Made by a program: the position numbers and the translations under genes. Shown in pieces: positions 1-40,579 of a stretch of 64,000 bases of DNA (position 1 is its first letter; each line of letters begins with the position of its first letter). Below the pieces are notes generated by a model. It did no database searches. It worked only from the letters and a program-made list of their open reading frames with translations, and was not told the origin of the DNA. Origin of the DNA: Lentinus brumalis (taxonomy: Eukaryota; Basidiomycota; Agaricomycetes; Polyporales; Polyporaceae); contig MARA01000019.1 in assembly GCA_001792895.1 (NCBI GenBank), positions 372,001-436,000 of the forward strand. Reading direction: 5' to 3'.

Positions 1-3000
1 ATGATGGCAGAAGCTGCGGTCTGAACGCGCAGCCATGATGCAGGCTAACGCAGATGGCGTCAGTTCTGAATGAGCGAAGTGTACCATAATATGGACGTAC
101 CCCGTGTCCGCCAGGAAGGTGGCCCAACACCGTGCTCGCCGAGATCATCGCGGGCAGCCATTCTGACGAGTTCCAGACGCCCGTCGCGCTCCCCGTGAGT
201 TGCCCGATTCGAACGATCGTCGTTCGTATAGAGGTGCGCTCCCCCGCGGCCCGAACGAGCTCTTCTGCAATCCACTTCGCTTCGCTGTACCCTTGTCCGA
301 CAGCTTTGGCAGCATCCAAGGGCTGCTCCGGCGGAGGAGGCAGGTCTGCCGAGTAATCTGAAGAGCTGTGAGTTACAGACAGGAAGATTCTGTTGAAAGT
401 GACTCACTCCTGAAGATCCCAGAGCTGCTGCCGTACAGCAACGACACAGGACCGAACTCGAGCGCCTCGCTTGCAAGGTCCAACAAGCCGCGCATAGCGA
501 GAAGCGTACCCCTGAACGAGGAGAGCGGGAGATCGAAGTTGACAAGCCAACCTATGCAAAGAAGTCAACACCTTCAGGACGAGTATGGGAGGTGGACGCC
601 GAGACTCACCGACGTGGATGATGTGAGAGACAGATGTTCGGAGCTGTGCAGAAGTTAGACTCATGTAGCGAAACGAGAAGCACTGTCTCGCACCTCTTCG
701 TACACCACCGGATCCAGACCAAGGTGTTCTCCCTCCAAAGGACAGTCCACGAGCACAAAACGCGACGAATCGAGCAGTGCGGTGTCCAGTCCCCTCTCCG
801 TGAATGCCCCGAGTTGTCGATCCCTCGTGGAGCCCTGTCGCCCAGGTCGCACCAATGCGATCACCTTGTCGTAGCTCGAAGTCGAAAGCAGCTCGGCGAG
901 GATATGAGAGCCGAGACTTCCTGTCGTGCCCGTCACGAGCACGACCTGCGACTGCCTCTTCGGTGGAGCATCAGCAGGCGGGGACCGATGGGAGATGGTC
1001 GCGCTGAGCTCCTCGAGCAGCGACTGCATCTCGCGGACGTGACTGGCGACGTAGTCTTCTCGCTCGGAAGCAGGATCGGTTGGATCTTCCGCAGGTGCGG
1101 TCGATCGTTCCAGGGCCTCCGACTCGGCGCTCTCCATTCGTGCTTGGAGGTCGGCTATCGTGAGATCAGCGAGGAGCTGGAGCTGGGAGACGGAGACAAG
1201 GGAGCGGAGGGCATAGGACAGTGAGGATGCGGAGAGCGAGTCGAGACCGTATGAAGTGAGAGGGACGTCAAGCGTAACGTCGGCCTCCTGGAGATCGAGA
1301 ACCTTGCAGACGATCTGCACGAGAGAGGGCTTGCCGCTCGCGCAATCCTCGGTCGACGCCTCCTCCTCATGCTGAACGAGATGATCGTAGAGCTGCGAAG
1401 GCCCCATGTTGTCGCGGACGATGCGCCAGTCGAAGTCTGGGATGTACTGCCAGACAGGGCCTTCGCGCAACTTGCGAATCCCGTCTCCAATGTAACTGCA
1501 CAGTTCTGAAGACGATCTGTCAACTCTGGGCTCTGAACGTTCCGGAGTGGCACTCACCTCGAGCAGTCATGCCCCAGTCAATCATGTGCCGCACACGAGT
1601 GTTGTACGAGTCGTCTGTCAACGTCAGGATCCGGCTGTCCAGAATGATCGGCGAGACGATGGAGAATGCGTTCGAATAGCCCCGTATCGCACCCGTGAGC
1701 GCGGTGTTCGCACTACAGCTTCGTCAGCAACATCAGTCACCAGAGCATTGAACACTACATACGCTGCATAGCTCGTCTGCCCCGGGTTGCCGAACATGCC
1801 CGAAATCGATGAGAAGGTGACGCAGAAGTCGAGCGACGCGACATCGACGGCACGAGTCAGGGTGGTGAAGGCGTCGACCTTGGGTGGGAACACGCTGTCA
1901 AAGTTCTCTTGAGTCTGCGACGCGAAGGGACGATCGTTGAGCAAGGCCGAAAGGATGATAGCACCGCCGAGGGGCACCGACGAGGCTTTGAGGATGGCTT
2001 CGAGTTGCTCGACGGAAGTTGCTGAGGCAGCGCAGGCCTGCACGACGAGGTCGTCGCGGCTGCTGAGGTAGTCGAGGATTCTCTTCCCGATAAAGTCGCC
2101 TCGGCTTCGAAGGCTCTCAGGTCCCGAGCGAGACGTCAAGATGAGGTGCCTTGCCCCATGCTACGCCTGTCGTCAGTGTAACTCTGCTTCAACGACTGAA
2201 TACACTCACGTCATACATCCACAAAGCGATGTGCAGCCCCAGACTCCCAATGCCACCGACGAGTAGGTACGCCTTGTGCGGGTCGAACAGAGACGGAGGC
2301 CGCGCGGTCACGTCTGCACTGACGTCTCCCAGTGCGGCTAATAGCGGAGTGTACGTGATCGCTGGAAGTGCCAGACTACGGCTGTACTCGAGCGCCGCAC
2401 GCACAGCATCTCCGACGATCCAAGGGTCATCCGCAAGCATCTTCGCAATACCGACGTCCGGGTCGTTCCAGAACAGCGCATGCCCAGAGGATGGTAGGAG
2501 GCTCTGCAGAATAGTCATCTGGTTCCGGTCAGACGCCCATGCAGCGAGGAAGTGTGGCTTTCGACTGTAGTGGGGCTTCAGGGTGCTGCCCTCCAGCGAC
2601 GTCACGATGGCGGTCTCCATGCCGAGTCCTGTCAGAACGGACTGAACGTCCCGAGCCAAGATCTCATCGGAGTGCGAAGGAGCGAATATCAGTGCTCGCT
2701 TTCCGCGGAGACGCATGGGGTTCAGGAAGGTGGCCGGACCGACGAGGAGCGCTGCGATGGTGGGGGCGAGCAGAGACGGGCCAGATAACTCTGGACTTGA
2801 GAGAGTCCCGCCATACTCGGCGATGGAGCCTTCGTGAACCTCTAGATGACTGCAGACTGGCGACGACGTGATGCCGACAACAGTCGACCCTTCGAGCGTT
2901 CCTGCGAACGCCCAGACATGGTTGCCGTGCGGGTGAACTGCAGATACCTGCACAATGCGCTTCTCTCCCTGTGATCGTGGAGTATGGGTCTGCGTGACGT

Positions 3001-6000
3001 CGCCCTCGTGCAGCGTCCACGGTTGTTGAGGATCGAAAGGAACACGCTCTGAAGGCGCAGATGAGAGCGTGATGCGCGGTACATGTACCACGCCGTCCTT
3101 GCCGACGCTCATCTCCAGATCCGTCGGAGGGAGCGAAGAGAGGACGTCAGCGCAACGGATCTGCTGGGCCTTTGTCAATGACCCGTCGAAGACGGCCACT
3201 CTGACCGTCCACGCAGGATACTCCTTCCTCAAAGACCGCGTGAATCCGACCGCGGCGTCACCATTCAAGCCGTCCTGAGCAATGAAGAGAAGCGACACGT
3301 TCTCGCGGGGGTCCAGCGCCTTGAGAGGGGCCTGCAGCTTCATCTCTTCCCCTCTCACGTAGTCCATGATGAGGGAGGGTGCCTTATCTCCGCCGCGGTC
3401 GGACGACGCATCGGTAGAGAAGGTAACGTCTTCCCAGTCTGAGTTTGAGGAGGCCGACGAGGATGCGTGTGTATCCGACGCATCGTCCCCGTCCGCGATG
3501 TGCAAGAGCTCCCGGGCAGTGGGAGGCGATGCCACAGCCGTAGGCATCAAGAACTCTGCACCTGAGACGGGGAGGACGAGGCCTGTCGGTTCGTAAACAA
3601 CGTCATAGCGCTTCTGCACGGCGGCCCGAGAGAAACCATGTCGTGCCACTTCCAGTCGGTCGAACACACACAACGGCGACCCAGTGTCATCGGTTATGAC
3701 GACGTCGAACGTGATGGCCTCTGCACGAAGGACCGGTGAGTCGCGCCATGAAGTACTTAGTTTGTGGGAAGGTACATACCTGGCGCCCAAGCGACTGTTG
3801 TCGCCTTGGCATACAGAACCTCTGGGAAGGCCTCCGTCCTCAGGCGAGAACTGGTGCGGAAGGCCGAGACCTTGTCAGGGAGGTGGTAAAGGTCGCGGTC
3901 GTAATTCCCAGTCATCATCGGATGAGCAACGATGTGAATGGCAGCATCGAGAATAGCAGGATGGAAGACATAGTCTTCAATGCTGACGAACGGCCAGCAC
4001 ATTAACACTGTCCTACCGTGGTGTACAATCCAATGATGCTTACTTGGGTAGATCGTCATCGCGTCCCTTGATCTTGACGAGTGCCTCGACCGTGCCGTCA
4101 GCACGGGTGGTAGTGTGGCACTCTTGAATTCGCCGGTAGAGTGGCCCATACTGCAAGAAGTGCGCGATCCCAGAGTACACCTCTGTATGAGAGTTCAGCA
4201 GAGAGGCCACACGACTATGATGGCTCCCCTTACCACTAGTCTTGACGGGCTTCATGATCGCGCGGGTAGATTCAATGTCCAGCTTGTGCATATCGAGATC
4301 TTGGGTCGGCTCCGTAGACAGGAAGCCGGTCGCATGGCGTCGATTGTACTGTGCGGAAACACATTGGATGTGAGTGAAAGGAAGCACACTACCGAATGAC
4401 GCTTATGCTCACATTGATAGGCCACGTATCCGAATGGTCGGCCGTAGACGTGCTGTTCACACTCCAGGCCGTTCCATGCAGCTCAACATTGACCGGAGTC
4501 GGTCGTTCGGACGACAACGGCAGCAGCCTGTGAAATGCAATGTCGTAAAGCTCCGTCGCCCCAAACTCCAGCGCCTGCAGCAGAAGCAGAGCATGAGCAC
4601 AACCATCGCACCAATCTCAAAACGCAAAGCACGCACCATCTCAATGAACCCAGATGCCGGCATGATAGGCTCCCCTTGATGACATGATCGGCCAGCTCGG
4701 GATGCGTCTTCGCGTTCAGCCTTAGCTGCGCATAGTTCAGGGGCCCGTTGCGCTGCTGCCGCTGCCTCACGATTTCAGGCGTGTGCACGAACCACGGCAC
4801 ATTCTTCGGCGCAAACGGGTACTTCGGCAGCACGACCTTAACCGGCCGGCCCGCACTCCCATACAGCGCATCGAAGTCGACGCAGTTGTGGCCCGCAGCG
4901 ACGACGCTCCCCAGGGCTGTCAAAAACTCGGACACCTCGGTGCCGGGCGTCGGGGTGCGTGCGCGGCGCAGGGGGCAGGTGATGGTGATGTTGTCGATGC
5001 CTTCTGCCATCGTCCGCAGGTAGCCCGTGAGCACGGGGTGGGGCCCGATCTCGACGAAGGTCGCGCCCTTGTACCGCGGAAGCATCGCTTCGATCGCGTC
5101 CTGGAAGAGGACGGGCTTGATCGTACCGTCCCAGTAGTAGTCCGTGTCCATCGTCGCGTCGAAGAGCCCACCGGTGACGGTCGAGTAGGTCGCGATCTTG
5201 GGGATATTAGCATCGGTGACATCAGCAGGGAAGATGTCTGCGAGCAAGCGCATGAACTCTGCGCGGCACATCTCCATCATCGCCGAGTGGACGGGGATGC
5301 GCGTCTTGAGTCTGCGCGCGAAGATGCCAGCAGCAGTCGCCTTCGCGACAGCGAGCTCAACGTGGGTCTCTTCGCCAGAGAGTGTGACGGCTCCCGCGGT
5401 GTTGTAGCATCCGACTTCGAGAACGCCCTTCCCGAGGTCCGCGTTGACCTCGTCGATGATGGTCTGTGCCTGCTTCGGGGAACAGGAGACCGCAGCCATA
5501 GTGCCCTTCGCATCTTCGAGAAGTGACAGCGCACGTCCTCGGGCAATCGCGAGCTTGAGTGCGACGATGTTCGATGCGGCTCCCGAAGCCGAGAGTACCG
5601 CGGTCTCGCCCGCAGAGTGGCCCACAACGACGTCTGGACGTACCCCTGCCGCTGCCAGGGCTTCGACGAGAGCAAGCTGGAGCATCGTGAGAGCAGGCAG
5701 TGTGATAGCGATGGGCCACGGGTCCCCAAGTGTGTCCGTCGGATGCTCTGGAGAGTCATCGAACAGCCCGGTCGACTCGACGAGTGACGTGCCGACGACA
5801 GATGTGTAGACTTGGTCGAGCTCAAGAATGCTCTCACGGAACGGTGCGCAAGTGCGGAACAGCTCCCGCCCCACTGTCAAGAAGATAGTCAGTCATTGTT
5901 GGCGTGCAGGAGAACATGTCAGGGAAGCTCACTATGGAAGTGTTGCGTCCCCTGGCCAGAGAACACGAAGACAATGGGTGGACGGGTCTTCGGGACGATG

Positions 6001-8017
6001 GCTGGTTTGCTGAACGTGGGCGCTTTGGCTGTCCCGGCGACAGCGAACGACCTCCATGTCATAGAACGTGCACGGCGGCCGGCGAGCCTTGCCAGTGCAG
6101 CGGCCTCTGTAGAGCCGCTTGCCGTGGCCAGCAGAGCCTCACCGAGAGCTGTCACGGACCGAGGAGACAGGGCGGCGGCGACGAGAAGCACTGGGGCGTC
6201 TGCACTCATCGTCCAGAACGCGGGAACATTCTTCGCAGGAGGAGGGCCTTGCACGACTACGTGCCCGTTCGCTCCGCCGATGCCGGAGCTTGTCATTGCG
6301 ACCAGCGGCCGTCCGTTCCCCGAACGACATCGCAGCGGTTCTGGTTCGAGGGGCACACGGAGGCGATACTGCGACCACTTGATAGCGGGATTCGGGCTGC
6401 TGAGGTTGACATTCGGTGGGATGGTCCCGGTGTTGAAGATCCCGCAGACCTTGCACAGGGATGCGAGGAACGCCGTAATCTCCAAGTGACTGCGATATCA
6501 TCTCAGCTCGGAAGAACGAGCACGGGTCGTGTGGTAGAAGCTCACCCGATATTCCCTTTGACGCTTCCAATGACAATCTCGTCATCCCGCTTGAACGCAT
6601 CTCCGACCCAATTTGCCTCCGTCGGGTCGCCCTGAGCGGTACCTGTCCCGAGCAGAGCAGAGGACAAACAGATGCAGAACATCAGCCGCCTGTCTGATAG
6701 CACGTCTTTCAAAAATACGAATACCCACCTGTCGCATGCAGTTCGACGAAGTCGACGTCGCTCGGCCTCCGTCGGGCCTGCGAGAACGCGCGGAGCATGG
6801 CATCTCTCTGCGCCGGGGCCGCAGGGGCGTTCGCGGGAACAAGAGAACCAGACGAATTGACACCGGTGCCCAAGATCTGATACGAATCATCAGTTACACG
6901 AGTACACACAGCTAGCAGGGACGGAGCACCCACGGTAGCGTAAACGTGATCATCATCGCGCAGCGCTGCTTCGAGGGGCTTCAAAACAATGACCACAACA
7001 CCTTCTCCGCGGCCGAATCTGTGCAGTGGGCGCCGGGCGGTGGTGGGCGGTGATGAGAAGAGAACCGGCCAAAAGAGGCGCGAAGCACGCACCCGTTCGC
7101 GGTTACATCGAATGGTTTGCACTTTCCGTCCGGTGATAGAACTCCCCCTTGGGTATATGTCAACCATTCCGAGAACCTTGCGTGACACATCAGGGGTGCT
7201 CCGGAATTTGTACAATCTTAGCACTGACCTGTGGTTGATCTGGGAACCGCCGACCAGAGCGGCTTCGCATTCTCCGTTCCGCAAGGCTTGGACTGCGAGA
7301 TGAGTGGCGTATAAGCTCGAGCTGCACGCGGTGTCTACAGGCAGCGAGGGTCCTCGCAAATCAAGGTGGTAGGACACGCGGTTTGCGAGCATCGAAGGGG
7401 CATAGGCGAATGAACCCTTCGCTTCAGCGTCGTCCTGCATTCGGAGGAAACGTGAGCCGGTGCAAGACGGGGATGGGCGGCTGAAGAGGCGAATTTGACT
7501 ACTTACGTGGCCGGAGACGGCGAACATATCATGGGCGACCCCAGACATGTAACAGCCCACGTTCTTCCCCCGATAGTCGATCCCTGAGTCTTGCAGGGCG
7601 ACGAACGAGAGCTCGATGAGCTTGCGGGCGCTGAGCGGCATGAGCTGCGCATCTTTGGCGGTGACGCCGAACTCCAGGTAGTCGAAGTGATCGATGTCTT
7701 TGAGAAACGAACCAGCGCTGGCGTGCACCTTCCCGACGGATGTGCCGCGCAGACTGCAGAAAAACGATGAGTGCACCGAGCGTCACGATTCTTAGCACAG
7801 ACGTACAATTGTGCGTTGAAACGCTCCTTGGGTATATCACCGTACGCTTCTCCCCGTTGAAGCAGGAAATCAAAGAAGGTGGTGTAGTCGAGATCGCCGT
7901 CTGCGAAGCCGCCACCGGGCAGCTGAGCAGCGATGCCCACCTAGATGACGGTGAGACCACGTTCACGCAAAGACAGACTGGACTCACGATTGCAATCTCT
8001 GTGGGTGCGTCAGCCAT
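1..8017 (-). CDS. Reducing polyketide synthase with C-terminal thioester reductase (3' end missing)
   Basis: A multidomain iterative type I polyketide synthase; about 2,300 residues lie in the window after splicing many short introns. Seen in order: ketosynthase (start MADAPTEIAI, active Cys in DTACSSS near 7300, HATG at the 6740 splice); acyltransferase (FVFSGQGTQ near 5940, GHSAGE near 5610); dehydratase (second motif FHPAILDAA near 3970); a 500-residue stretch with possible decayed enoylreductase; ketoreductase (GGIGSLG near 2240, SSISGMFGNPGQTSY near 1790); carrier protein (YGLDSL near 1240); reductase (VTGTTGSLGSH near 910, YSEAK near 280) that runs off the left edge. No methyltransferase domain was seen. 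A reductase terminus usually releases the product as an aldehyde or alcohol. The DH HxxxGxxxxP motif is split by a frame change at 4673-4676; read literally, the protein stops at 4483 after KS-AT. Every other exon join tested keeps frame. The family assignment is firm; the product is unknown. Confidence 0.93.
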
Positions 8018-32816: not shown

Positions 32817-32915
32817 AGTTCCTGAGATGAGTAGATGGCGGTCCGGCAGGTAAGAATGAGCTCCACAAACTCGAAGTTGCCCACCCGCTGTTTAGCGCTC
32901 GAAATCAGCCACAAC

Positions 32916-32957
32916 CCAAGCAAAGCCAAACATGGTCATCGTAAGCGCCTATAAAAG
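32916..32957 (+). promoter_or_regulatory. Promoter module P1 of snoRNA-host unit 1
   Basis: CCAAGCAA at 32916-32923 lies 33 bp upstream of TATAAAAG (32950-32957), which is followed by TTTGCTCGCG. The same layout recurs at 35480-35527 and 38190-38241, upstream of the other two snoRNA-bearing units. It is divergent from the PITH gene, whose ATG is at 32816. Confidence 0.55.
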
Positions 32958-32979
32958 TTTGCTCGCGAGTCGCGACACG

Positions 32980-33380
32980 ATCTTTTGTGTTCGCTCTCAT
33001 CTTTCCCCTCACGCATCAGCGACTCGGTTTCCGTACTGTGAGTACTCGTACTTTGTGTTCAACGTATGATGGTACTTTAGTAATTTGCGTTCGATCGCCT
33101 TCGTCCTCATACCAAAGGGGTGCGCTTGCCGGTGCGCCCTGGGGATGAGGGTATGAGACAACTTTACACTTTCTGATTCTCTTCCATCCTTACTTTTGTG
33201 TACAACGCTGACAGCAACGTCTTCAGGCTCGCACACCGCGGTGATCTGCTACCCTCAATCTTTCCGATATCTACCTTGTTGTCACTCCTCATGTACGCTT
33301 CGTTCTGTACGGATGGACATCATAACAATGTGAAGCATCTCTATAATCGTGTCAGAGAGGGTTCGGATCTTGTTACCTAG
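32980..33380 (+). ncRNA. Putative snoRNA host transcript 1 (non-coding, spliced)
   Basis: Start estimated about 30 nt below the TATA box at 32950; 3' end uncertain. Exon 1 ends at 33037. The 188-nt intron 33038-33225 runs from GTGAGT to TTCAG, has a CTGAC branch-like element shortly before its end, and carries a box C/D core. Neither exon has a convincing reading frame. It lies between the divergent PITH gene and the converging GNAT gene. Confidence 0.5.
33061..33181 (+). ncRNA. Box C/D snoRNA candidate 1 (intronic)
   Basis: C-like box ATGATGG at 33066-33072 and D box CTGA at 33173-33176, 49 nt before the 3' splice site. Between them are the shared CGATCGCCTTCGTCCTCA block, a GC-rich hairpin, and a C'-like ATGAGAC near 33153. 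No terminal stem is obvious. Target unknown. Confidence 0.5.
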
Positions 33381-33394
33381 TCAGTAAGTCTGTC

Positions 33395-34458
33395 TCACAC
33401 CGTCCACTGTCCACCCGCGAAGTCGTAAGTGTAGCTTTTCATCGCGACGGACATGAGCACCACTGGCACTTACCTTGGTCATGACCCACTCCGGATACCC
33501 CGTAGCAGCCTGACCCTTTGCCTTGACTCCGTGCTCGTCAACAGCGCCGACACCGAATTGGTGCTCCTCGTCGATCTGCACAATTCGGGTTCGTACGGTT
33601 TCCATGATGCTATCCGGTGAGTACGCACCGCGAACCCGTAATGAAGATAGATATCTCGGCTGAACGCTCTCGTCGCTTCCAGGTGCACGGGCTTTGGAGA
33701 CGCACGACGGTATCCCTCCTCCATCAGCATTGTGGCATATCCTGTGTATGTGTAAACCGATCCCTGAGCAATGTATGAGCTCATGATGACGGACAGATCA
33801 GGTACCTTTGCCCTGGTGTCCCGGATCGATCGCCATCTCGAGCAAATGCCACGAGTCACGCCAGTCAAGCCCGCGAGCACCGAATGCCTTCTCGAGGGTC
33901 CGATTTAGGATGGGCTCGAAGTCTATCATCAGTCGCTGCGTTCGGTACAGTGAGTGAATTGCATAAGTAGCAGCCAGAGCGGGCGACGTACCTTGACACC
34001 ACGCGGTCCCCATCCGAACAGCACCTTCAAGATCCCGCGCGTAGCAGCGTGAGCGGATTCATGTCAAGCGTTTGCCCTGGAGGCAGCCAAAGCGCAACCC
34101 CAACGACCTCCTCCTTCTGCGGCGCTTCCTCGGACTTCCTCTTCTCCTTGCCCTCGGCCAATGGAGTGTTCGCTCTAGCCTCGTCGACGCGGGGAACGAC
34201 CACGACCTCCACCACGCCCTTGACGAGCATGATCGCTCGGACTAGGGAATCCTGGAACCGAGACAAGTTGCGCATGCTGCGTTTCGCTTTCGGAGAAGGG
34301 TTCACGATGTCGTCCACCAGCTCCGGGACGCAGCCGAACCAGTTCATAGCTGGGTCTTTCGCGAAGGCGCGAGTGAGGACGCGCGCGATGTCTTTGCGCT
34401 CTGAGCGGTATGCGGCTCGGACGTACGCCTTAGGGTGCTGAGTGGATTCCGCCGACAT
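33395..34458 (-). CDS. GNAT-family N-acetyltransferase
   Basis: An acetyl-CoA-dependent acyltransferase of about 260 residues, probably cytosolic; substrate unknown. ATG at 34458 starts MSAESTQHPKAYVRAAYRSE, followed by DIARVLTRAFAKDPAMNWFG, a fungal GNAT N-terminal pattern. A charged insertion (EGKEKRKSEEAPQKEE) precedes VVGVALWLPPGQTLDMNP. The core has LLEMAIDPGHQGKG joined by an intron to YATMLMEEGYRR (near 33730), which is the acetyl-CoA binding motif A, then VHLEATRAFSRDIYLHYGF, motif B. The final exon reads EWVMTK and, after a 3'-terminal intron, WTV with TGA at 33395; without that splice the frame would stop at 33381. A general-function gene, with no visible link to the polyketide locus. 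Confidence 0.88.
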
Positions 34459-35479
34459 CGCTGTCGAGGGTGGGTGTCGAGTTGGGTTGTTAAGACAAGT
34501 GAGTTTGCAGTTCGAAGACTGTGACAGCGCAGGGACGACAAACTCACCCACATCGCAGATGGTCACCGAGCATCGGTTGTGCGTGTTTGCGTCTGTGGGA
34601 GTCCTGCGTTGTCCAGTGTCAGCACGACTTCGCGGGACGTATGTGGGCGGTCGCGCCGTTACGTGGTGACGGTGCGCCCATCTGCAGGCTGAACGCGCGC
34701 TGCTCGTCTGGCATTCCCCTAAAGGAGGGACCCACCACGTCAGGTCTCAAGAGACTGTGGGAGAGCGGTCACTGGGGCTGGTGCCGTGGCCCGTGGTGGG
34801 TGCTAGCCGGCCATGGGTGTACCATCGCAGAGTAACGACGTTGGGATACCGTATCGCTGCATCCGTATAGTCCTGCAGGCAAGGAGGCGAAGACGCTCGC
34901 AGCACCGGTCAAGGTAGGGCGGCGACAGCGCGGATGCTTACACCTGAGATCTGAGACTCTCGGATCCATGAATGCATGTGCTCGGGCGCACCTTCTGTCT
35001 TGCGGGGTGAATGACCGCCTGGTCGGAGGGGAGGGAATGGTCCATTTACGGAGACGAACTTCTTGGCGTTCGAGAGACCTCAGGCTCTCCAGAAATCAAC
35101 CTACGCGGGAGCGGACTGGGTGAGTCAGAGTACGACGACTCCTGCGCGAAGCACATGCGTTGTTCGACAGCGCCGGCTGACATCGAGTCGCGCAGTTCCA
35201 GGATGCCCGGCGAGCCGTCCGCCAATGGAGTGAGTCCATGACTCGCGCAGGCACGGTCGATAGGACTTCACGAGTTTTGAAGGTGGAACTACGTCGCGCT
35301 GAGCTCAGGGTCGGCTTGTACACGAGTATAAGTTGATGTGTGGAAACAAGAGCCAGCTTTGTTGGATGGGCATGTCGGCTCCTAGAACCAGTGATACGTA
35401 CTTAGCAGTTTAAGCTTCATTCTCAAGCTCGTCCCGCCGCCAGTGGACGCCACTCGACGTCAATGTATGTAAACAACGG
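34459..35479. other. Intergenic region, nothing recognised
   Basis: About 1 kb between the GNAT start and the second snoRNA-host promoter. Short frames only, on either strand. A TATAAG at 35326-35331 is not followed by the TGCTCGC element seen at the three host promoters. Confidence 0.4.
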
Positions 35480-35527
35480 CAAGCAAGCGAGCTCGGGCGT
35501 TCATGCCCTCCGTATATAAGTGTGCTC
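35480..35527 (+). promoter_or_regulatory. Promoter module P2 of snoRNA-host unit 2
   Basis: CAAGCAAG at 35480-35487, TATATAAG at 35513-35520 (33 bp downstream), then TGTGCTCGC. Order, spacing and wording match P1 (32916) and P3 (38190), which suggests common regulation or descent by duplication. Confidence 0.6.
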
Positions 35528-35640
35528 GCACTACGTGTTCTGCTGGCAAGGCTCGCTCCCGTATCCCCCTCCGTCGTCGGCTACTCCTCATGGTCAAAGT
35601 GATCGTGCGACATGTGAGTATTTAACTTCTTGTCGTCGTA

Positions 35641-35748
35641 TGTATATGATGTCATAGTACTAGTCTTCGTCTATCTGACCACCTTCGTTGGTGAGGTTAT
35701 AACTTATGTGACGACTCGCTGCATGGGTTCATCGACCTTCTGAACGTT
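35641..35748 (+). ncRNA. Box C/D snoRNA candidate 2 (intronic)
   Basis: C box ATGATGT at 35646-35652, D' CTGA at 35675-35678, C' GTGACGA at 35708-35714, D CTGA at 35740-35743, which is 68 nt before the 3' splice site at 35811. This is the most complete C-D'-C'-D order in the set. It shares CCTTCGTTGG and GTGACGACT with candidate 6. Confidence 0.65.
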
Positions 35749-35934
35749 CCATGTCTTGTGGCTGTTGCTTAGTTCTGGCGAATATTATTGCTGACACCTC
35801 TTCGTCTGTAGGGATGCCTCGGTGTGAGGTTTGGATTCCTCGGGCGCCCACACAGCGGAGTGCTCCCGTCGTGACGACCAGTGGCCGAGGGCAAACAAAC
35901 ACAGTGAGTCGTGCTTCGGGCTTGATCTCATACG

Positions 35935-36024
35935 TTCGTATGATGGCGTGGAGCATTATTCGATCCCCTTCGTCCTCACGCAAGGACGATGGGTCGGTAT
36001 GATTTGTTATTTTGACTGAACTCC
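35935..36024 (+). ncRNA. Box C/D snoRNA candidate 3 (intronic)
   Basis: C box ATGATGG at 35940-35946, C' ATGATTT at 35999-36005, D CTGA at 36016-36019, 58 nt before the 3' splice site at 36077. The middle contains CCTTCGTCCTCA and a short TCGTCCT/AGGACGA hairpin. Confidence 0.58.
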
Positions 36025-36213
36025 CTTAGTTCCCTTGTCCATACATATGACGACTGACATGCTATTCCCTCTTCAAGACTCCATGGCATGGAGATCAGCA
36101 TCCCCTAATCGGTAGTCTACCTCCGCAGTATACATTCCGGTGCCTCGTCATTGTATCAACGCAGCTGTAACTCGACTAGTGCCATGGTGAGCATCGTTTC
36201 TGTGTGGTCAATG

Positions 36214-36335
36214 GAGATATGATGTCAAAATCATAGTGTCCTTAGTTTTGATCGCTCTCGTCCTCAATAGACGGAGTGCATTGCTTCTGCCTCGTGAGGA
36301 CGAGAGCATGACAACTCATCCTTTGCTGAACCCTT
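36214..36335 (+). ncRNA. Box C/D snoRNA candidate 4 (intronic)
   Basis: C box ATGATGT at 36219-36225, C' ATGACAA at 36308-36314, D CTGA at 36326-36329, 58 nt before the 3' splice site at 36387. A perfect 12-bp stem pairs CTCTCGTCCTCA (36255-36266) with TGAGGACGAGAG (36295-36306), enclosing 28 nt. Confidence 0.62.
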
Positions 36336-36630
36336 TCTTTTCCTCGGCTACCTGGGAACGTACGTGCTGACATAAATTTGTTTTCAGAAGCCCTTACGCA
36401 CGGACTGATGGTATCGGACTCCCCCCGCGTTCATCTTCAGCACGATCGGGTTGAGCGGTGAACGAACATAGTGAGTACACTCTCAGTGCTTGATATGTAA
36501 CGTCAACTCGCTGAATTCTGTTCTGTCATCCCTCAGGACCCCATGGAATACGAGCAGATCCCCCTCGCAGAAATCCCCGCCCTTCGTTGAGAACAACCCG
36601 ATGCAGTGAGTGTTCGTTAAGTGGACCGGG

Positions 36631-36745
36631 GGTATATGATGACATGAGGATGCTCTGTTTGATGGCTTTCGGCCTTACACCAAAGGGCTGCCAGTTCCTG
36701 CGCCCTGAGGACGAGAGTATGACAATACATGCTTGCTGAAATGTT
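36631..36745 (+). ncRNA. Box C/D snoRNA candidate 5 (intronic)
   Basis: Perfect C box ATGATGA at 36636-36642, C' ATGACAA at 36719-36725, D CTGA at 36736-36739, 52 nt before the 3' splice site at 36791. The middle shares ACCAAAGGG and GAGGACGAGAGT with candidates 1 and 4, with base changes in the stem. Confidence 0.65.
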
Positions 36746-36905
36746 TACAACTCACTGCGAACCTGCTTGCTGACTTCTCTCCGTCTTCAAGGTCCAACGA
36801 CCCAGGACATTTAGGACCCGTCGTTCAGGGGCTGGATCGAGATGAGTCGGGACTCAGCGTTTCGGCAGCACTGTAACAGTAGACTATCTTTGTATCAAAC
36901 ATACT

Positions 36906-38189
36906 CTGGAGTAGAATGGATCTAAAATTCCCGTCCAAAATTCACGAAGCGTCGGATTGACGCGTCATGCGATGCTTAGCAGTCGGCAGGTTCGTCTGGG
37001 CCTGAGCCTGGTCGATGACATCCCATCCCATAGCGATTTGAGGTACAGCCTAAATTGGGTGAGCACAAGATACACTAGCTACTTGCTCCGCTGACTACAC
37101 ACCGGCACCGCCTGCCGCAAGCTCATCTACGCCTTCGCACACTCCTGCCGCTCCCTCACTCTCGCCCCTAATCCCAACGCACCCAGCACGTCATAGCGTC
37201 ACATCAGGCCCCGGATCCATCGCCATGCTCATCGCGACCTCCCACCCATCCTTGATCGCTGCCCCTCCGCCCTCGCGCCCACATCATACAGCAAGACCAC
37301 CTCAGCTCCGAGTACCCGCCACACGCCCGGCGCCCTCAGCCCCCACTCCGCCGCGACAAAGCTGTTCTCCGGCTTGCCGGAGCCCTCGTGCTGCGCATCA
37401 ACTGTGAGTGCTTTTGCGAAGGGCGACCCCAGGTTCCCTCGCGCCCGTGGTCTGAGGTCCTGCTTCCTGATGACTTCTTGTGCTCGCCTTGCACTTCTAG
37501 GAGCGCCTTGCCGAGAGACATGATGCGGCCCTAGATGGTGGGCCATCGCGTGGTTCGTCCCTTTGACCGGCCGGCGGCGTGCTGGGGTGGTTGCGCGGGA
37601 ACTCGTGTCCTGGCATGCACGATTAGGATGGAGATTCCGACGACGTGACGCGGTCTTCGTAAAGCTCCGATAATGTTTGTCCGGATATCTGGTACCCCGC
37701 AGACAAGGAGCCCGACAGCGTGAGGGCTGCGAAAGCACGGGTTTCAACACATTATGCTCCGTCAGTCTCAGTGCAGCCAACGGATGGTTCCTGTCGCACC
37801 TTCACAGTGACTGTGGACTCCATTCTGAGCTCGAACTTAATGAGGCAGGAAAGGCAATCCACGAGCGCAATTCTCGAGTCACCTGGTAAATACTCGTCAG
37901 AGGCAAGTCAATGGATGAAAGTATACCGACACATCTAGATGCACCACCTGGCGAGGTCTGTTAGACCTTGAGGGACCAACGACATCGAGGCGCACCGTTC
38001 GTCGGGACGCTCGTGAATTGTTTGCTGATCAGCTCGTCTCGACTCGGACTTGAGGTTTTTCATGTTCGGTGAGGAGAGCCCCATCGCACAAGAGTCAGCC
38101 GGCGACCAGCTCGCCGTTCGGATAGGTCCTGAGGGCATGAGCAGAAGGCCGCACTTGGCTGGTTTGCACACGCCACGGTGTCAACACGG
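36906..38189. other. Intergenic region between host units 2 and 3
   Basis: About 1.3 kb without a supported gene. On the minus strand, 37180-37780 has protein-like pieces in different frames (SFVAAEWGLRAPGVWRVLG near 37340; AAIKDGWEVAMSMAMDPGPD near 37240). They may be the remains of a gene, but I could not join them into one frame or recognise a family. Confidence 0.35.
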
Positions 38190-38241
38190 CCAAGCAAGTG
38201 ACCCAGAGCGTCTATGCGAGTTCATCAGTATAAGTATGCTC
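38190..38241 (+). promoter_or_regulatory. Promoter module P3 of snoRNA-host unit 3
   Basis: CCAAGCAAG at 38190-38198, TATAAG at 38229-38234 (38 bp downstream), then TATGCTCGC. Third instance of the module seen at 32916 and 35480. Confidence 0.55.
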
Positions 38242-38359
38242 GCATCAGGCTCGCATCAAGCTCGTGTGCTCGCCCCAGATCCCTGCCCGCCCTCAGCCAT
38301 CCCACTGCTATCGGGAAAACCTGTTGCGTGTCCGGTGAGTATCTACTGTTATGTCTTCG

Positions 38360-38450
38360 TGTTCATGATGTCATACTAGTACTATAATCCATTGTGCTCG
38401 CGATTGCCTTCGTTGGTTTGTGACGACTTACTACGCTTTTTCTGAATATT
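38360..38450 (+). ncRNA. Box C/D snoRNA candidate 6 (intronic)
   Basis: C box ATGATGT at 38365-38371, C' GTGACGA at 38420-38426, D CTGA at 38442-38445, 74 nt before the 3' splice site at 38519. It shares ATGATGTCATA, CCTTCGTTGG and GTGACGACT with candidate 2 and looks like its paralogue in a first intron. Confidence 0.6.
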
Positions 38451-38719
38451 CACGCTGTGGTTTTGACAAGTCTCGCTGTCCCCATGCGATTATCATTGCT
38501 GACACGACTCTGTTTGTAGATGACTGCAGCCTCGGCGCGGAGACCCCATCACTCCGCTGGAATATGCGAAACGTCGACACTGCCACGTAGTCGGAGTGTC
38601 AGCTCGAACATGGATGTGGAGAATTGAAATGACTTCACCGGAGTCTGGTGTCGGCTTTCGTGAATCGTAAAGTGAGTGTCTAATCCATGTTTGAAGTCTG
38701 CATGGGATGGTATTTGATG

Positions 38720-38822
38720 ATTGTATGATGGTCTCCGTTCTCGCCAAGGATTGTACCCGCGTGGGTGCGCCTTGGAAACGAGCTCGAGAGCCCTTGATAA
38801 ACTCCTTTTGTCTGAGTCTTCC
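38720..38822 (+). ncRNA. Box C/D snoRNA candidate 7 (intronic)
   Basis: C box ATGATGG at 38725-38731, C'-like TTGATAA near 38795, D CTGA at 38812-38815, 54 nt before the 3' splice site at 38869. An internal CTCG-CCAAGG / CCTTGG-CGAG hairpin replaces the GTCCTC stem of its relatives. Confidence 0.52.
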
Positions 38823-38949
38823 TCCTTCCCGAGTCGCGATCGCCTTCGCTGACCTTCGTTCGCCTCTAGAGTTTGTCGTGCGAAGTTATGATGGTCTTCC
38901 TACCAACAACCGTCCAGAAAGTGCTCTGTAAGTCTCCTGCCTGATGTTG

Positions 38950-39045
38950 TACGCATGATGTTATCTTCAATTTGTTACTATGCGCTCGTCCGCACGCGGA
39001 CGAGGGTAGATGGCCCGTACATGATTTCTGTTCATCTGATCTTGT
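38950..39045 (+). ncRNA. Box C/D snoRNA candidate 8 (intronic)
   Basis: C box ATGATGT at 38955-38961, C' ATGATTT at 39021-39027, D CTGA at 39036-39039, 63 nt before the 3' splice site at 39102. A perfect 8-bp hairpin CTCGTCCG/CGGACGAG lies at 38985-39004. Confidence 0.6.
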
Positions 39046-39280
39046 TACCTCTCTTTATCGTCGACTCGCTTTTGCTGACATATATCTGTCCCTATACTGC
39101 AGACGGTGCCGTGAAGACTGATCGACTTGAGTACTGCCGGCGCTGCGCTCTGCCATAGCCTCGGGAACGGCAAAGTTGCTTGAGTAATCCCGGTATTGCA
39201 TCCTCGCTTCTTCCACCGTCCATGTCAATGCAGATGCAACACAGAAGATGCTCGGTAAGTGTCTACTCTGCGCTTGCAAT

Positions 39281-39371
39281 GAACACATGATGTTATCAAA
39301 AGATTATTATATGCCCCGTCCACACACGGACGAGGGCGGATGATGAATTACTCAGAATCGCCCTGAACCCT
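39281..39371 (+). ncRNA. Box C/D snoRNA candidate 9 (intronic)
   Basis: C box ATGATGT at 39287-39293, perfect C' ATGATGA at 39340-39346, D CTGA at 39363-39366, 59 nt before the 3' splice site at 39425. It has the same ATGATGTTATC start and a CCGTCC/GGACGAGGG hairpin like candidate 8. Confidence 0.62.
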
Positions 39372-39769
39372 CCCTTCTTCACTGCTTCTCTACGAATTCG
39401 TTCGCTCATACTCGTTCGTCTCCAGCAGTGAAGGAACTGTCATGCGTAAACATTGTGCATTCCCTTCCGCCGTCAGGACGCCGCCCAGGACTAGCCAGCA
39501 TTGAAGATACATATGTATATCAGAGCGAGTCGTGGCCCCGCGCTGGTTGACTGGCCCAGCAACATGTGAGGACGAAGTTGCTTGTAGTCATACGTCTGGA
39601 TCGTCGTTCGTAACCTCGGGACGGGCTCTGGTCACCCGCTTCAACCTTCAGAACGCTATCCGATCTTCGAGAGACGGAGGGTCATCGTAGGACGCACCGC
39701 TCGCCGACTCTGCGCGGGAACGTATGATGAGAGCGCTAGCAAACATGGTGAGTACATGTTCCGTAGTGA

Positions 39770-39873
39770 TCTCCTTGTGATGATATATGATTCTGGTTCG
39801 ATTGTACGATCGCCTTCGTCCTTGCGAGGACGCAAGGTCGAAGTGAGATCTAACGTCAATTAACTGAACTTTT
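39770..39873 (+). ncRNA. Box C/D snoRNA candidate 10 (intronic)
   Basis: Perfect C box GTGATGA at 39777-39783, C'-like GTGAGAT near 39843, D CTGA at 39864-39867, 59 nt before the 3' splice site at 39926. CGATCGCCTTCGTCC and a CGTCCT/AGGACG hairpin (39817-39832) link it to candidates 1, 3 and 4. Confidence 0.6.
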
Positions 39874-40579
39874 TTCTTCGTGTTCCTGGTGTATGATCAT
39901 ACTGGCTGACATGCGCCCGTCTTCAGACCCAGCGTCGCAATACACTCAACCGCGCTCTGTAGACTACGACCCGGCTTCTCGTCTGCGACATGGTCGGGCT
40001 GCGCTGGAAGAGCCGGACGCCCTCCAACGTTGAACGAAGTGGACTTCAAGGCGGGCAGGAACGACGACCCCCGACCGCTGGGACGTTTACAGCGCACTGG
40101 GGCGTCGTTCGATCTCCTCGACATTCAGGTTCTTCAGTATGTCTCGCAGCCACGTTAAAGGCGAGCGAGCTCGTCGTAGCGCTTCTGGGGTCTGCAATGT
40201 CGACGGACTTCGCACGCACGAGCCGGCGGCCTTGGACCTCGAACCCGCACAATTCCTACTTGGCGGTTGGGCCGGCTGGCCGAAGTTATATCTAAGAAAC
40301 ACTCGCAGGGTGCCATTGTATCTAGATCGAATCCGAAGTACGTACTACGATTACACCTTCGCCGACCTGACCCTTCGGAATTGGATTCGAGTCTGAGCCG
40401 TTGGGCCGTGACAGAGAACGCGTCGTGAGTACTTGGTCAGTGGGTCGCGCGTGGGGTCCGGGCACTCATAATCAGCAAGTAGAAGAGTTGCAGCCAGTGG
40501 CAGAAGCTGGACCGCCGGTCGGTCCACGCGATGCACCGTATTTAGGGCCGGCTTCTTCGCGATTGTCACGTGCTTGAAA

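What the first reader, a model, noticed from the sequence alone, without database searches (positions are those of the whole stretch)
32950..40425. Cluster of ten intronic box C/D snoRNA candidates in three non-coding host units
Seen: ten introns of 165-201 nt, against 50-70 nt in nearby protein genes. Each has a C-like box (ATGATGA, GTGATGA, ATGATGT or ATGATGG) 17-53 nt after the donor and a CTGA D box 49-74 nt before the acceptor; C to D spans 80-111 nt. The exons between are non-coding. Known: box C/D snoRNAs use RUGAUGA and CUGA, and intronic ones often sit at a fixed distance from the 3' splice site. Inference: a multi-unit snoRNA host locus, a kind of gene protein-centred annotation usually misses.
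Basis: partly seen in the sequence, partly recalled or inferred. Interest (0 to 1): 0.87.

Follow-up and report, generated by a model that had tools for sequence, protein, structure and literature searches.

The report
Fungal array of ten sibling snoRNAs
Three neighbouring non-coding genes of a fungus appear to carry, one per intron, ten related small RNAs of the kind that guides chemical marks onto other RNAs, yet for most of the ten no ribosomal target could be recognised.

Summary
In detail: ten introns (171-201 nt), each with a C-like box, CTGA and a C-D span of 80-111 nt, in three units without long reading frames. Shuffled introns show the pattern in 0.15-1.15% of trials. New here: (1) the ten are paralogues, with a hairpin between weak D' and C' boxes supported by compensatory changes in eight of them; (2) each unit starts with the same TATA-type motif, not seen elsewhere in the window; (3) between the array and a partial copy about 100 kb away, C-D spans changed less (13 of 347) than internal exons (51 of 558), P = 0.002; (4) this genome's own U24 has the same layout: ATGATGT, D'-hairpin-C', CTGA 70 nt before the acceptor, no terminal stem. 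Best reading: box C/D snoRNAs in gas5/UHG-like hosts, a kind known in fungi, here filled by one amplified family. U24's guides score 12-13 at their sites on recalled yeast rRNA; of 19 array guides two reach 9.5 (18S A436, 25S G1450), the rest look orphan. The fungus's own rDNA was not found, no RNA data exist, and no other fungus could be searched.

The parts
32951..32966 (+). unit 1 core promoter motif (TATA type)
   Evidence: TATAAGTNTGCTCGC with 1 mismatch at 32952-32966; 3 matches in the window at <=2 mismatches, 0.27 expected
33038..33226 (+). intron 1 with snoRNA candidate i1 (C 33066-33072, D 33173-33176)
   Evidence: D' guide complementary to recalled 18S in D'+5 register at A436
35513..35529 (+). 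unit 2 core promoter motif
   Evidence: exact match 35515-35529
35614..35811 (+). intron with i2 (C 35646-35652, D 35740-35743)
   Evidence: paralogue of i6 (z 8.8)
35904..36077 (+). intron with i3 (C 35940-35946, D 36016-36019)
   Evidence: paralogue of i10 (z 12.6)
36187..36387 (+). intron with i4 (C 36219-36225, D 36326-36329)
   Evidence: paralogue of i1 and i5 (z 15.0, 12.1)
36606..36791 (+). intron with i5 (C 36636-36642, D 36736-36739)
   Evidence: paralogue of i1 and i4 (z 16.7, 12.1)
38227..38243 (+). unit 3 core promoter motif
   Evidence: exact match 38229-38243
38335..38519 (+). intron with i6 (C 38365-38371, D 38442-38445)
   Evidence: first intron of unit 3, paralogue of i2, first intron of unit 2
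38672..38869 (+). intron with i7 (C uncertain: ATGATGG 38725-38731 is D'-like by homology; D 38812-38815)
   Evidence: C-D fold z -3.64; missed by model R1; the acceptor AG reads TG in the segmental copy
38928..39102 (+). intron with i8 (C 38955-38961, D 39036-39039)
   Evidence: C-D span 1 substitution in 85 against the segmental copy; D' element like that of U24
39255..39425 (+). intron with i9 (C 39287-39293, D 39363-39366)
   Evidence: paralogue of i8 (z 12.2)
39748..39926 (+). intron with i10 (C 39777-39783, D 39864-39867)
   Evidence: C-D span 2 substitutions in 91 against the segmental copy
32967..33430 (+). unit 1 host transcript (ends inferred): exon, i1, exon
   Evidence: longest frame 29 aa after splicing; transcript ends not determined
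35530..36920 (+). unit 2 host transcript (ends inferred): i2-i5 plus one 66-nt intron without snoRNA candidate
   Evidence: longest frame 60 aa
38244..40424 (+). unit 3 host transcript (ends inferred): i6-i10
   Evidence: longest frame 101 aa; the part from 38643 on is duplicated, C48:511652-513453

Best explanation
Three neighbouring RNA polymerase II host genes with the same core promoter motif make spliced non-coding transcripts. Splicing and debranching free ten introns, and each intron is trimmed to a box C/D snoRNA of about 90-120 nt: C box, first guide, weak D', a hairpin of variable length, weak C', second guide, D box. The hairpin closes the D'/C' side as it does in this fungus's U24. 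The family grew by duplication of units and of introns. Boxes and hairpin were kept while the guides drifted apart, so that one or two members may still guide known rRNA methylations (i1: 18S A436; i8: 25S G1450) and the rest are orphans or have lineage-specific targets. Shown from sequence: boxes, hairpin, paralogy, shared promoter motif, lower divergence of C-D spans. Inferred: transcription, splicing, trimming, snoRNP assembly, methylation, targets.
For: Boxes and spacing in 0.15-1.15% of shuffled introns; specificity in intron scans. In the alignment of ten, CTGA, a CG in the hairpin and a G near C' are invariant and TGATG nearly so. Hairpin: 92% of cells paired, 6 of 11 pairs with changes on both sides, 0 of 500 shuffles reach the covariation score (8 of 10 hairpins, hand-fitted). 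Model R1 refinds its 7 members at 49.6-60.9 bits and gives 0 hits in 114.6 kb. Introns are paralogous while 0 of 66 pairs among 12 of the 14 exons exceed z 4. Segmental copy: C-D 13/347 substitutions against internal exons 51/558 (P 0.002) and intron flanks 33/376 (P 0.006). Shared promoter motif in 3 of 3 units. Own U24: intron of 203 nt, ATGATGT, D'-hairpin-C', D 70 nt before the acceptor. Guide test: 2 of 19 guides at score >= 9.5 on recalled yeast sites, 0.20 expected, P 0.018 (one of five thresholds shown).
Against: Only 2 of 10 C boxes are full RUGAUGA. As a group the ten show no terminal stem (29 of 60 positions paired, 30.3 in shuffles), though the two U24 copies lack one too. No Rfam family reaches its cut-off. 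17 of 19 guides reach no recalled methylation site at 9.5 or more, while U24 scores 12-13 at its own sites. In the sliding control other registers also give single scores up to 10.0. The number of further pair types in the hairpin is no higher than in shuffles (205 of 500). i2 and i6 fit the family model weakly (12.2, 12.9 bits, below five opposite-strand matches) and i7 not at all. 5' intron flanks (5 of 141) are as conserved as C-D spans, and the last exon changed at 35 of 486, less than the internal exons, so the test does not mark the snoRNA ends sharply. No RNA data.
Confidence: 0.87

Rival explanations
1. Introner-like elements: repeated, structured spliceosomal introns that multiply as introns and have no snoRNA role.
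For: Ten related introns, longer than the one short intron in unit 2, with hairpins; such elements exist in fungi and have predicted stable structure (PMC8469720, passages).
Against: Two searches of the 53.4 Mb genome, by the whole locus and by a C-box-plus-hairpin pattern, showed intronic copies only in the array and its segmental duplicate (both would miss diverged copies, and one search does not list every row). Hosts have no long frames; conservation is centred on C, hairpin, C' and D; the layout equals that of U24.
Confidence: 0.05
2. Decayed or silent snoRNA array: once functional C/D snoRNAs, now mostly pseudogenes riding in non-coding transcripts.
For: C boxes short of the full consensus in 8 of 10, few rRNA targets, i7 degenerate, and in the segmental copy the i7 acceptor AG reads TG and the C'-like letters of i9 are changed.
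Against: C-D spans changed less than internal exons after duplication, those of i8 and i10 above all (3 of 176; P 0.0004); compensatory changes in the hairpin; promoter motif in 3 of 3 units; U24, a clear guide, has the same ATGATGT.
Confidence: 0.07
3. The conserved snoRNA clusters I-III of fungi (snR72-78, snR55/57/61, snR41/51/70) in diverged form.
For: In those clusters each snoRNA sits in an intron of a non-coding host, in Basidiomycota too (PMC3596301, section 5 read).
Against: No array guide reaches 8 at any recalled site of those snoRNAs; the three that reach 8 do so at A436, A974 and G1450 (snoRNA-to-site assignments recalled). U24 scores 12-13 at its sites. No Rfam match. The ten are paralogues of one family, whereas cluster members are different snoRNAs.
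Confidence: 0.03
4. Hairpin small-RNA precursors (mirtron or milRNA type).
For: A hairpin in most introns; C-D fold z below -2 in 5 of 10.
Against: The shared stem is about 11-13 bp, z is above -1 in 4 of 10, and the boxes outside the hairpin are among the best conserved letters.
Confidence: 0.02

Closest known systems
gas5/UHG-type snoRNA host genes of fungi (Neurospora clusters I-V, PMC2780460, passages; fungal clusters I-III, PMC3596301, passages and section 5)
   Same: One box C/D snoRNA per intron, poorly conserved non-coding exons, polycistronic hosts.
   Different: Known clusters hold different, widely conserved rRNA guides; here all ten are paralogues of one family and most lack a recognised rRNA site.
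U24/SNORD24 (RF00069) and the fungal 'atypical snoRNA motif' of PMC5640933 (passages and the motif's section)
   Same: AUGAUGY C box, weak D', AUGAGAC-like C', CUGA, intronic; this genome's copy has a D'-C' hairpin and no terminal stem.
   Different: Array guides differ; only i8 keeps a similar D' element. R1 scores U24 at 9.1 bits, E 0.3, so descent from U24 is not shown.
Mammalian SNORD115/116 and SNORD113/114 arrays (recalled; PMC4063771 and PMC12724518 seen as listings with the start of the abstract)
   Same: Many paralogous, largely orphan C/D snoRNAs, one per intron of non-coding hosts.
   Different: Mammalian arrays are imprinted and large; here ten diverged members in three short genes of a fungus.

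Membership tests
box C/D snoRNA | C box RUGAUGA | tested here: met
   RUGAUG in 10 of 10 (i7 uncertain by homology); full RUGAUGA in 2 of 10. The genome's own U24 has ATGATGT and PMC5640933 gives AUGAUGY.
box C/D snoRNA | D box CUGA | tested here: met
   10 of 10, invariant in the alignment.
box C/D snoRNA | terminal stem next to C and D (common, not universal; recalled) | tested here: not met
   29 of 60 positions paired against 30.3 in shuffles; both U24 copies of this genome lack it as well, so it does not exclude membership here.
box C/D snoRNA | internal D' and C' boxes | tested here: inconclusive
   C'-like and D'-like letters on either side of the hairpin, placed by eye; weak, as in U24 here; in i8 and i9 the D' letters are not CTGA-like.
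box C/D snoRNA | guide of about 10 nt or more to a target in D/D'+5 register | tested here: inconclusive
   2 of 19 guides at >= 9.5 on recalled yeast sites, P 0.018; 17 of 19 none.
box C/D snoRNA | stable RNA bound by fibrillarin, Nop56/58, Snu13 | not testable with these tools
   no RNA or protein data
gas5/UHG-type snoRNA host gene | non-coding exons, one snoRNA per intron | tested here: met
   longest frames 29, 60 and 101 aa in the three units; ten introns, ten candidates; one further intron without one.
gas5/UHG-type snoRNA host gene | exons poorly conserved, intronic RNAs conserved | tested here: met
   0 of 66 exon pairs above z 4 (12 of 14 exons compared), introns up to z 16.7; C-D 3.7% against internal exons 9.1% and last exon 7.2% changed.
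U24 / SNORD24 | match to RF00069 and guides to 25S C1437 and A1449/G1450 | tested here: not met
   no Rfam match to it in the array; only i8 D' reaches G1450, at 9.5. Not filed as U24.
introner-like element | many near-identical copies in genes across the genome | tested here: not met
   whole-locus search: the only intronic copy is the segmental duplicate; diverged copies would be missed.

The most novel reading that the evidence does not exclude
A fungal counterpart of the mammalian orphan snoRNA arrays: an amplified family of C/D snoRNAs with its own non-coding host genes, whose boxes and hairpin are kept while guides diversify, acting mostly on targets other than the conserved rRNA sites (lineage-specific rRNA positions, tRNA, snRNA or mRNA).
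Probability: 0.4. Interest if true: 0.7.

Novelty: new variant of a known kind. Interest (0 to 1): 0.5.

Why it matters
Intronic snoRNA hosts are known in fungi, but in the rows listed by seven literature searches (open-licence papers, lists capped at 8-20 rows) I saw no fungal array of paralogous, mostly target-less C/D snoRNAs. If expressed, it would offer a fungal system for a question open since the Prader-Willi snoRNAs: what orphan C/D arrays do, and how new guides arise by duplication. It also shows how Rfam-based annotation can miss such loci: none of the ten reaches a family's cut-off, and this genome's U24 falls just below its own (39.1 against 41 bits).

Tried and rejected
Rfam on the window at gathering threshold gave 0 matches; at E <= 5 on 32900-40500 it gave three low matches, one of which (ceN54, 18.2 bits, cut-off 60) overlaps i6 and was taken as noise. 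C60 stretches (L041, L042) that share DNA with the locus hold no R1 match; the shared parts are antisense pieces of a BRCT-domain gene. The pattern ATGATG-N-CGTCC-N-GGACG had 101 matches in the genome against 42 for the reversed control; judged by eye, the listed rows of the family are i3, i4, i8, i9 and the copy of i9 at C48:512319. A second genome hit for C box plus the A436 guide element (C44, L043) sits upstream of a promoter-like stretch with no clear D box and was judged chance by eye. U24 as ancestor of the array: suggestive layout, score not significant. A contig with fungal 5.8S in a bacterial MAG (L039) gave no 18S or 25S by Rfam. RNAalifold on an automatic alignment of all ten gave no structure, so the hairpin was aligned by hand. 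Papers looked into without use for the argument: PMC5040776, PMC8216456, PMC8476143 (passages) and PMC4848094 (no passage found).
Full report
WHAT WAS CHECKED. The window is bases 372001-436000 of contig C48 of a 53.4 Mb genome without a name. It looks like a fungus, probably a basidiomycete: CCCTAA repeats at two contig ends, an acyltransferase domain of a polyketide-synthase-like gene in the window, short introns; the placement is my inference. The ten introns of the finding are present, with the spacing claimed except for one bound. With inferred exon ends the spliced units have longest frames of 29, 60 and 101 aa and at least two stops in every frame. The pattern arises in 0.15-1.15% of shuffled introns. 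It is rare among other possible introns: 10 hits among 64 + strand donors of the window, 9 of them in the array; 0 of 48 on the - strand; 2 of 126 in 114.6 kb of other stretches, about 24 kb of which had been fetched for holding a C...D pattern.

ONE FAMILY. Local alignment scores against shuffles put the introns in groups: i1-i4-i5, i3-i10, i8-i9, i2-i6, with i7 linked to i10, i1 and i8. i2-i6 is tied to the rest only weakly (z up to 3.9). None of 66 exon pairs exceeds z 4; 12 of 14 exons were compared, without the second exon of unit 1 and the last of unit 3. The first introns of units 2 and 3 (i2, i6) are paralogues. In the alignment of ten the invariant letters are CTGA, a CG inside the hairpin and a G near C', and TGATG is nearly invariant. 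Between a weak D' and a weak C' lies a hairpin of variable length. For the eight members in which its stem can be aligned (i2 and i6 have other, shorter hairpins and were left out), 92% of cells pair, 6 of 11 pairs carry changes on both sides and no shuffle of 500 reaches the covariation score; the number of further pair types is no higher than in shuffles (205 of 500). That alignment was fitted by hand and bulges in i7, i9 and i10 were removed, which favours the structure. A covariance model of seven members refinds those seven at 49.6-60.9 bits by construction, finds i6 and i2, which were not in it, at 12.9 and 12.2 bits starting exactly at their C boxes but below five opposite-strand matches, and misses i7. 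It finds nothing at E <= 10 in 114.6 kb elsewhere.

THREE UNITS. TATAAGTNTGCTCGC occurs three times in the window at up to two mismatches, once before each unit, against 0.27 expected. This supports three transcription units, not one.

SELECTION. A genome search with the whole locus found one further copy of part of the array: C48:511652-513453, 90% identical to query bases 5694-7475, about 100 kb downstream. It lies within an 86% identical block that begins at window 38643 and therefore lacks the promoter motif and i6. R1 finds i8, i9 and i10 in it, not i7. Between the copies, C-D spans changed at 13 of 347 aligned bases, internal exons at 51 of 558 with 25 gap columns, the last exon at 35 of 486, downstream sequence at 61 of 581, and intron flanks at 33 of 376 (P 0.002 against internal exons, 0.006 against flanks). 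i8 and i10 changed at 3 of 176, i7 and i9 at 10 of 171. The 5' flanks alone changed at 5 of 141, so conservation is not confined to C-D; the 3' flanks changed at 28 of 235. In the copy the i7 acceptor AG reads TG and the C'-like letters of i9 are altered. i8 and i10 thus look constrained, i7 and i9 less so.

A CONTROL FROM THE SAME GENOME. Rfam family SNORD24 has one match, at 39.1 bits just under its cut-off of 41, in a 203-nt intron of a gene that reads like RACK1/Asc1 (recalled, not searched). Its C box is ATGATGT, a GGG...CCC hairpin sits between D' and C' (TATGAGAC), CTGA lies 70 nt before the acceptor, and neither it nor a second U24 copy on the opposite strand of the same locus, noticed through, has a terminal stem. 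The array's departures from the textbook form (seventh letter of C not A, weak D' and C', no terminal stem) are therefore shared by a guide of this fungus. PMC5640933 describes a fungal 'atypical snoRNA motif' with C box AUGAUGY and C' AUGAGAC in the cpc2 intron (section read), which fits U24. Model R1 scores U24 at only 9.1 bits, E 0.3, so common descent with U24 is possible but not shown.

TARGETS. Two 18S patterns found no rDNA in the held genome, so I used S. cerevisiae rRNA and methylation sites from memory; all 56 sites agree with the recalled letters. As a positive control both U24 copies score 12-13 at 25S C1437 and A1449/G1450. Of 19 array guides (i7 has no D' guide; D' places chosen by eye), 2 reach 9.5 at a listed site in the D/D'+5 register, with 0.20 expected and P 0.018: i1 D' at 18S A436 (10.5) and i8 D' at 25S G1450 (9.5). 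The threshold was one of five: at 8 it is 3 of 19, P 0.058; at 9, 2 of 19, P 0.040; at 10, 1 of 19, P 0.098; at 10.5, 1 of 19, P 0.061. Sliding the sites by up to six bases also gives single scores up to 10.0, but in none of those twelve registers two of 9.5 or more. Ignoring known sites, i8 D has 11 uninterrupted Watson-Crick pairs with 25S around 2674. The rest look like orphans on this evidence; tRNA, snRNA and mRNA targets were not tested. Genome-wide, a C box followed within 30 nt by GTAATTTGCG occurs twice: i1 and a place without a clear D box, so i1 may be this fungus's A436 guide (the role of yeast snR87 and vertebrate U16, recalled).

COMPARISON. Intronic C/D snoRNAs in non-coding hosts are known in Neurospora (PMC2780460, passages) and, for clusters I-III, in Basidiomycota (PMC3596301, passages and section 5). 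Those clusters hold different conserved guides. The present locus is the same kind of host with a different content: one amplified family. I saw no such fungal array in the rows listed, which cover open-licence papers only and show capped lists.

VERDICT. Box C/D snoRNAs in three dedicated host genes, probability about 0.87. The array of mostly orphan paralogues is the interesting part and remains to be tested by RNA work.

Noticed in passing
L040 1506-1582 (+) and 278-351 (-): The genome holds two U24 copies within about 1.2 kb on opposite strands: one in an intron of a RACK1-like gene, the other, read by eye, inside a donor-to-acceptor stretch of the opposite strand. Their D'-C' hairpin loops differ.
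   Followed up: partly
PMC5640933, section 'Atypical snoRNA motif': The motif described there as atypical, in the cpc2 intron with C' AUGAGAC and D' CAGA, fits U24 of the RACK1-like intron as found here.
   Followed up: partly
window 37211-37423 and 39985-40137: These parts around unit 3 match, in antisense, a BRCT-domain gene on C60 (76-91% identity; its intactness was not checked). Unit 3 may sit within the remains of a gene copy, and its last exon would include antisense of it.
   Followed up: partly
window 33471-33744: 69% identical to C48:529226-529503 (- strand); perhaps a paralogous protein-gene piece downstream of unit 1.
   Followed up: no
G000:C48:511652-513453 (L038): The segmental copy of unit 3 lacks the promoter motif and i6; a TATA-like stretch of other sequence lies roughly 150-200 nt upstream (by eye).
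   Followed up: partly
window 2189-5880 (-): Polyketide-synthase-like gene: acyltransferase domain PF00698 in the ORF 4483-5880; the adjacent ORF 2189-3790 has 3 unnamed relatives in ENA records, two with PF08659.
   Followed up: no
held genome G000: No 18S rDNA by two patterns: unassembled, withheld, or different at those places.
   Followed up: partly
window 36471-36536: Unit 2 has one short 66-nt intron without snoRNA candidate between i4 and i5 (ends read by eye).
   Followed up: no
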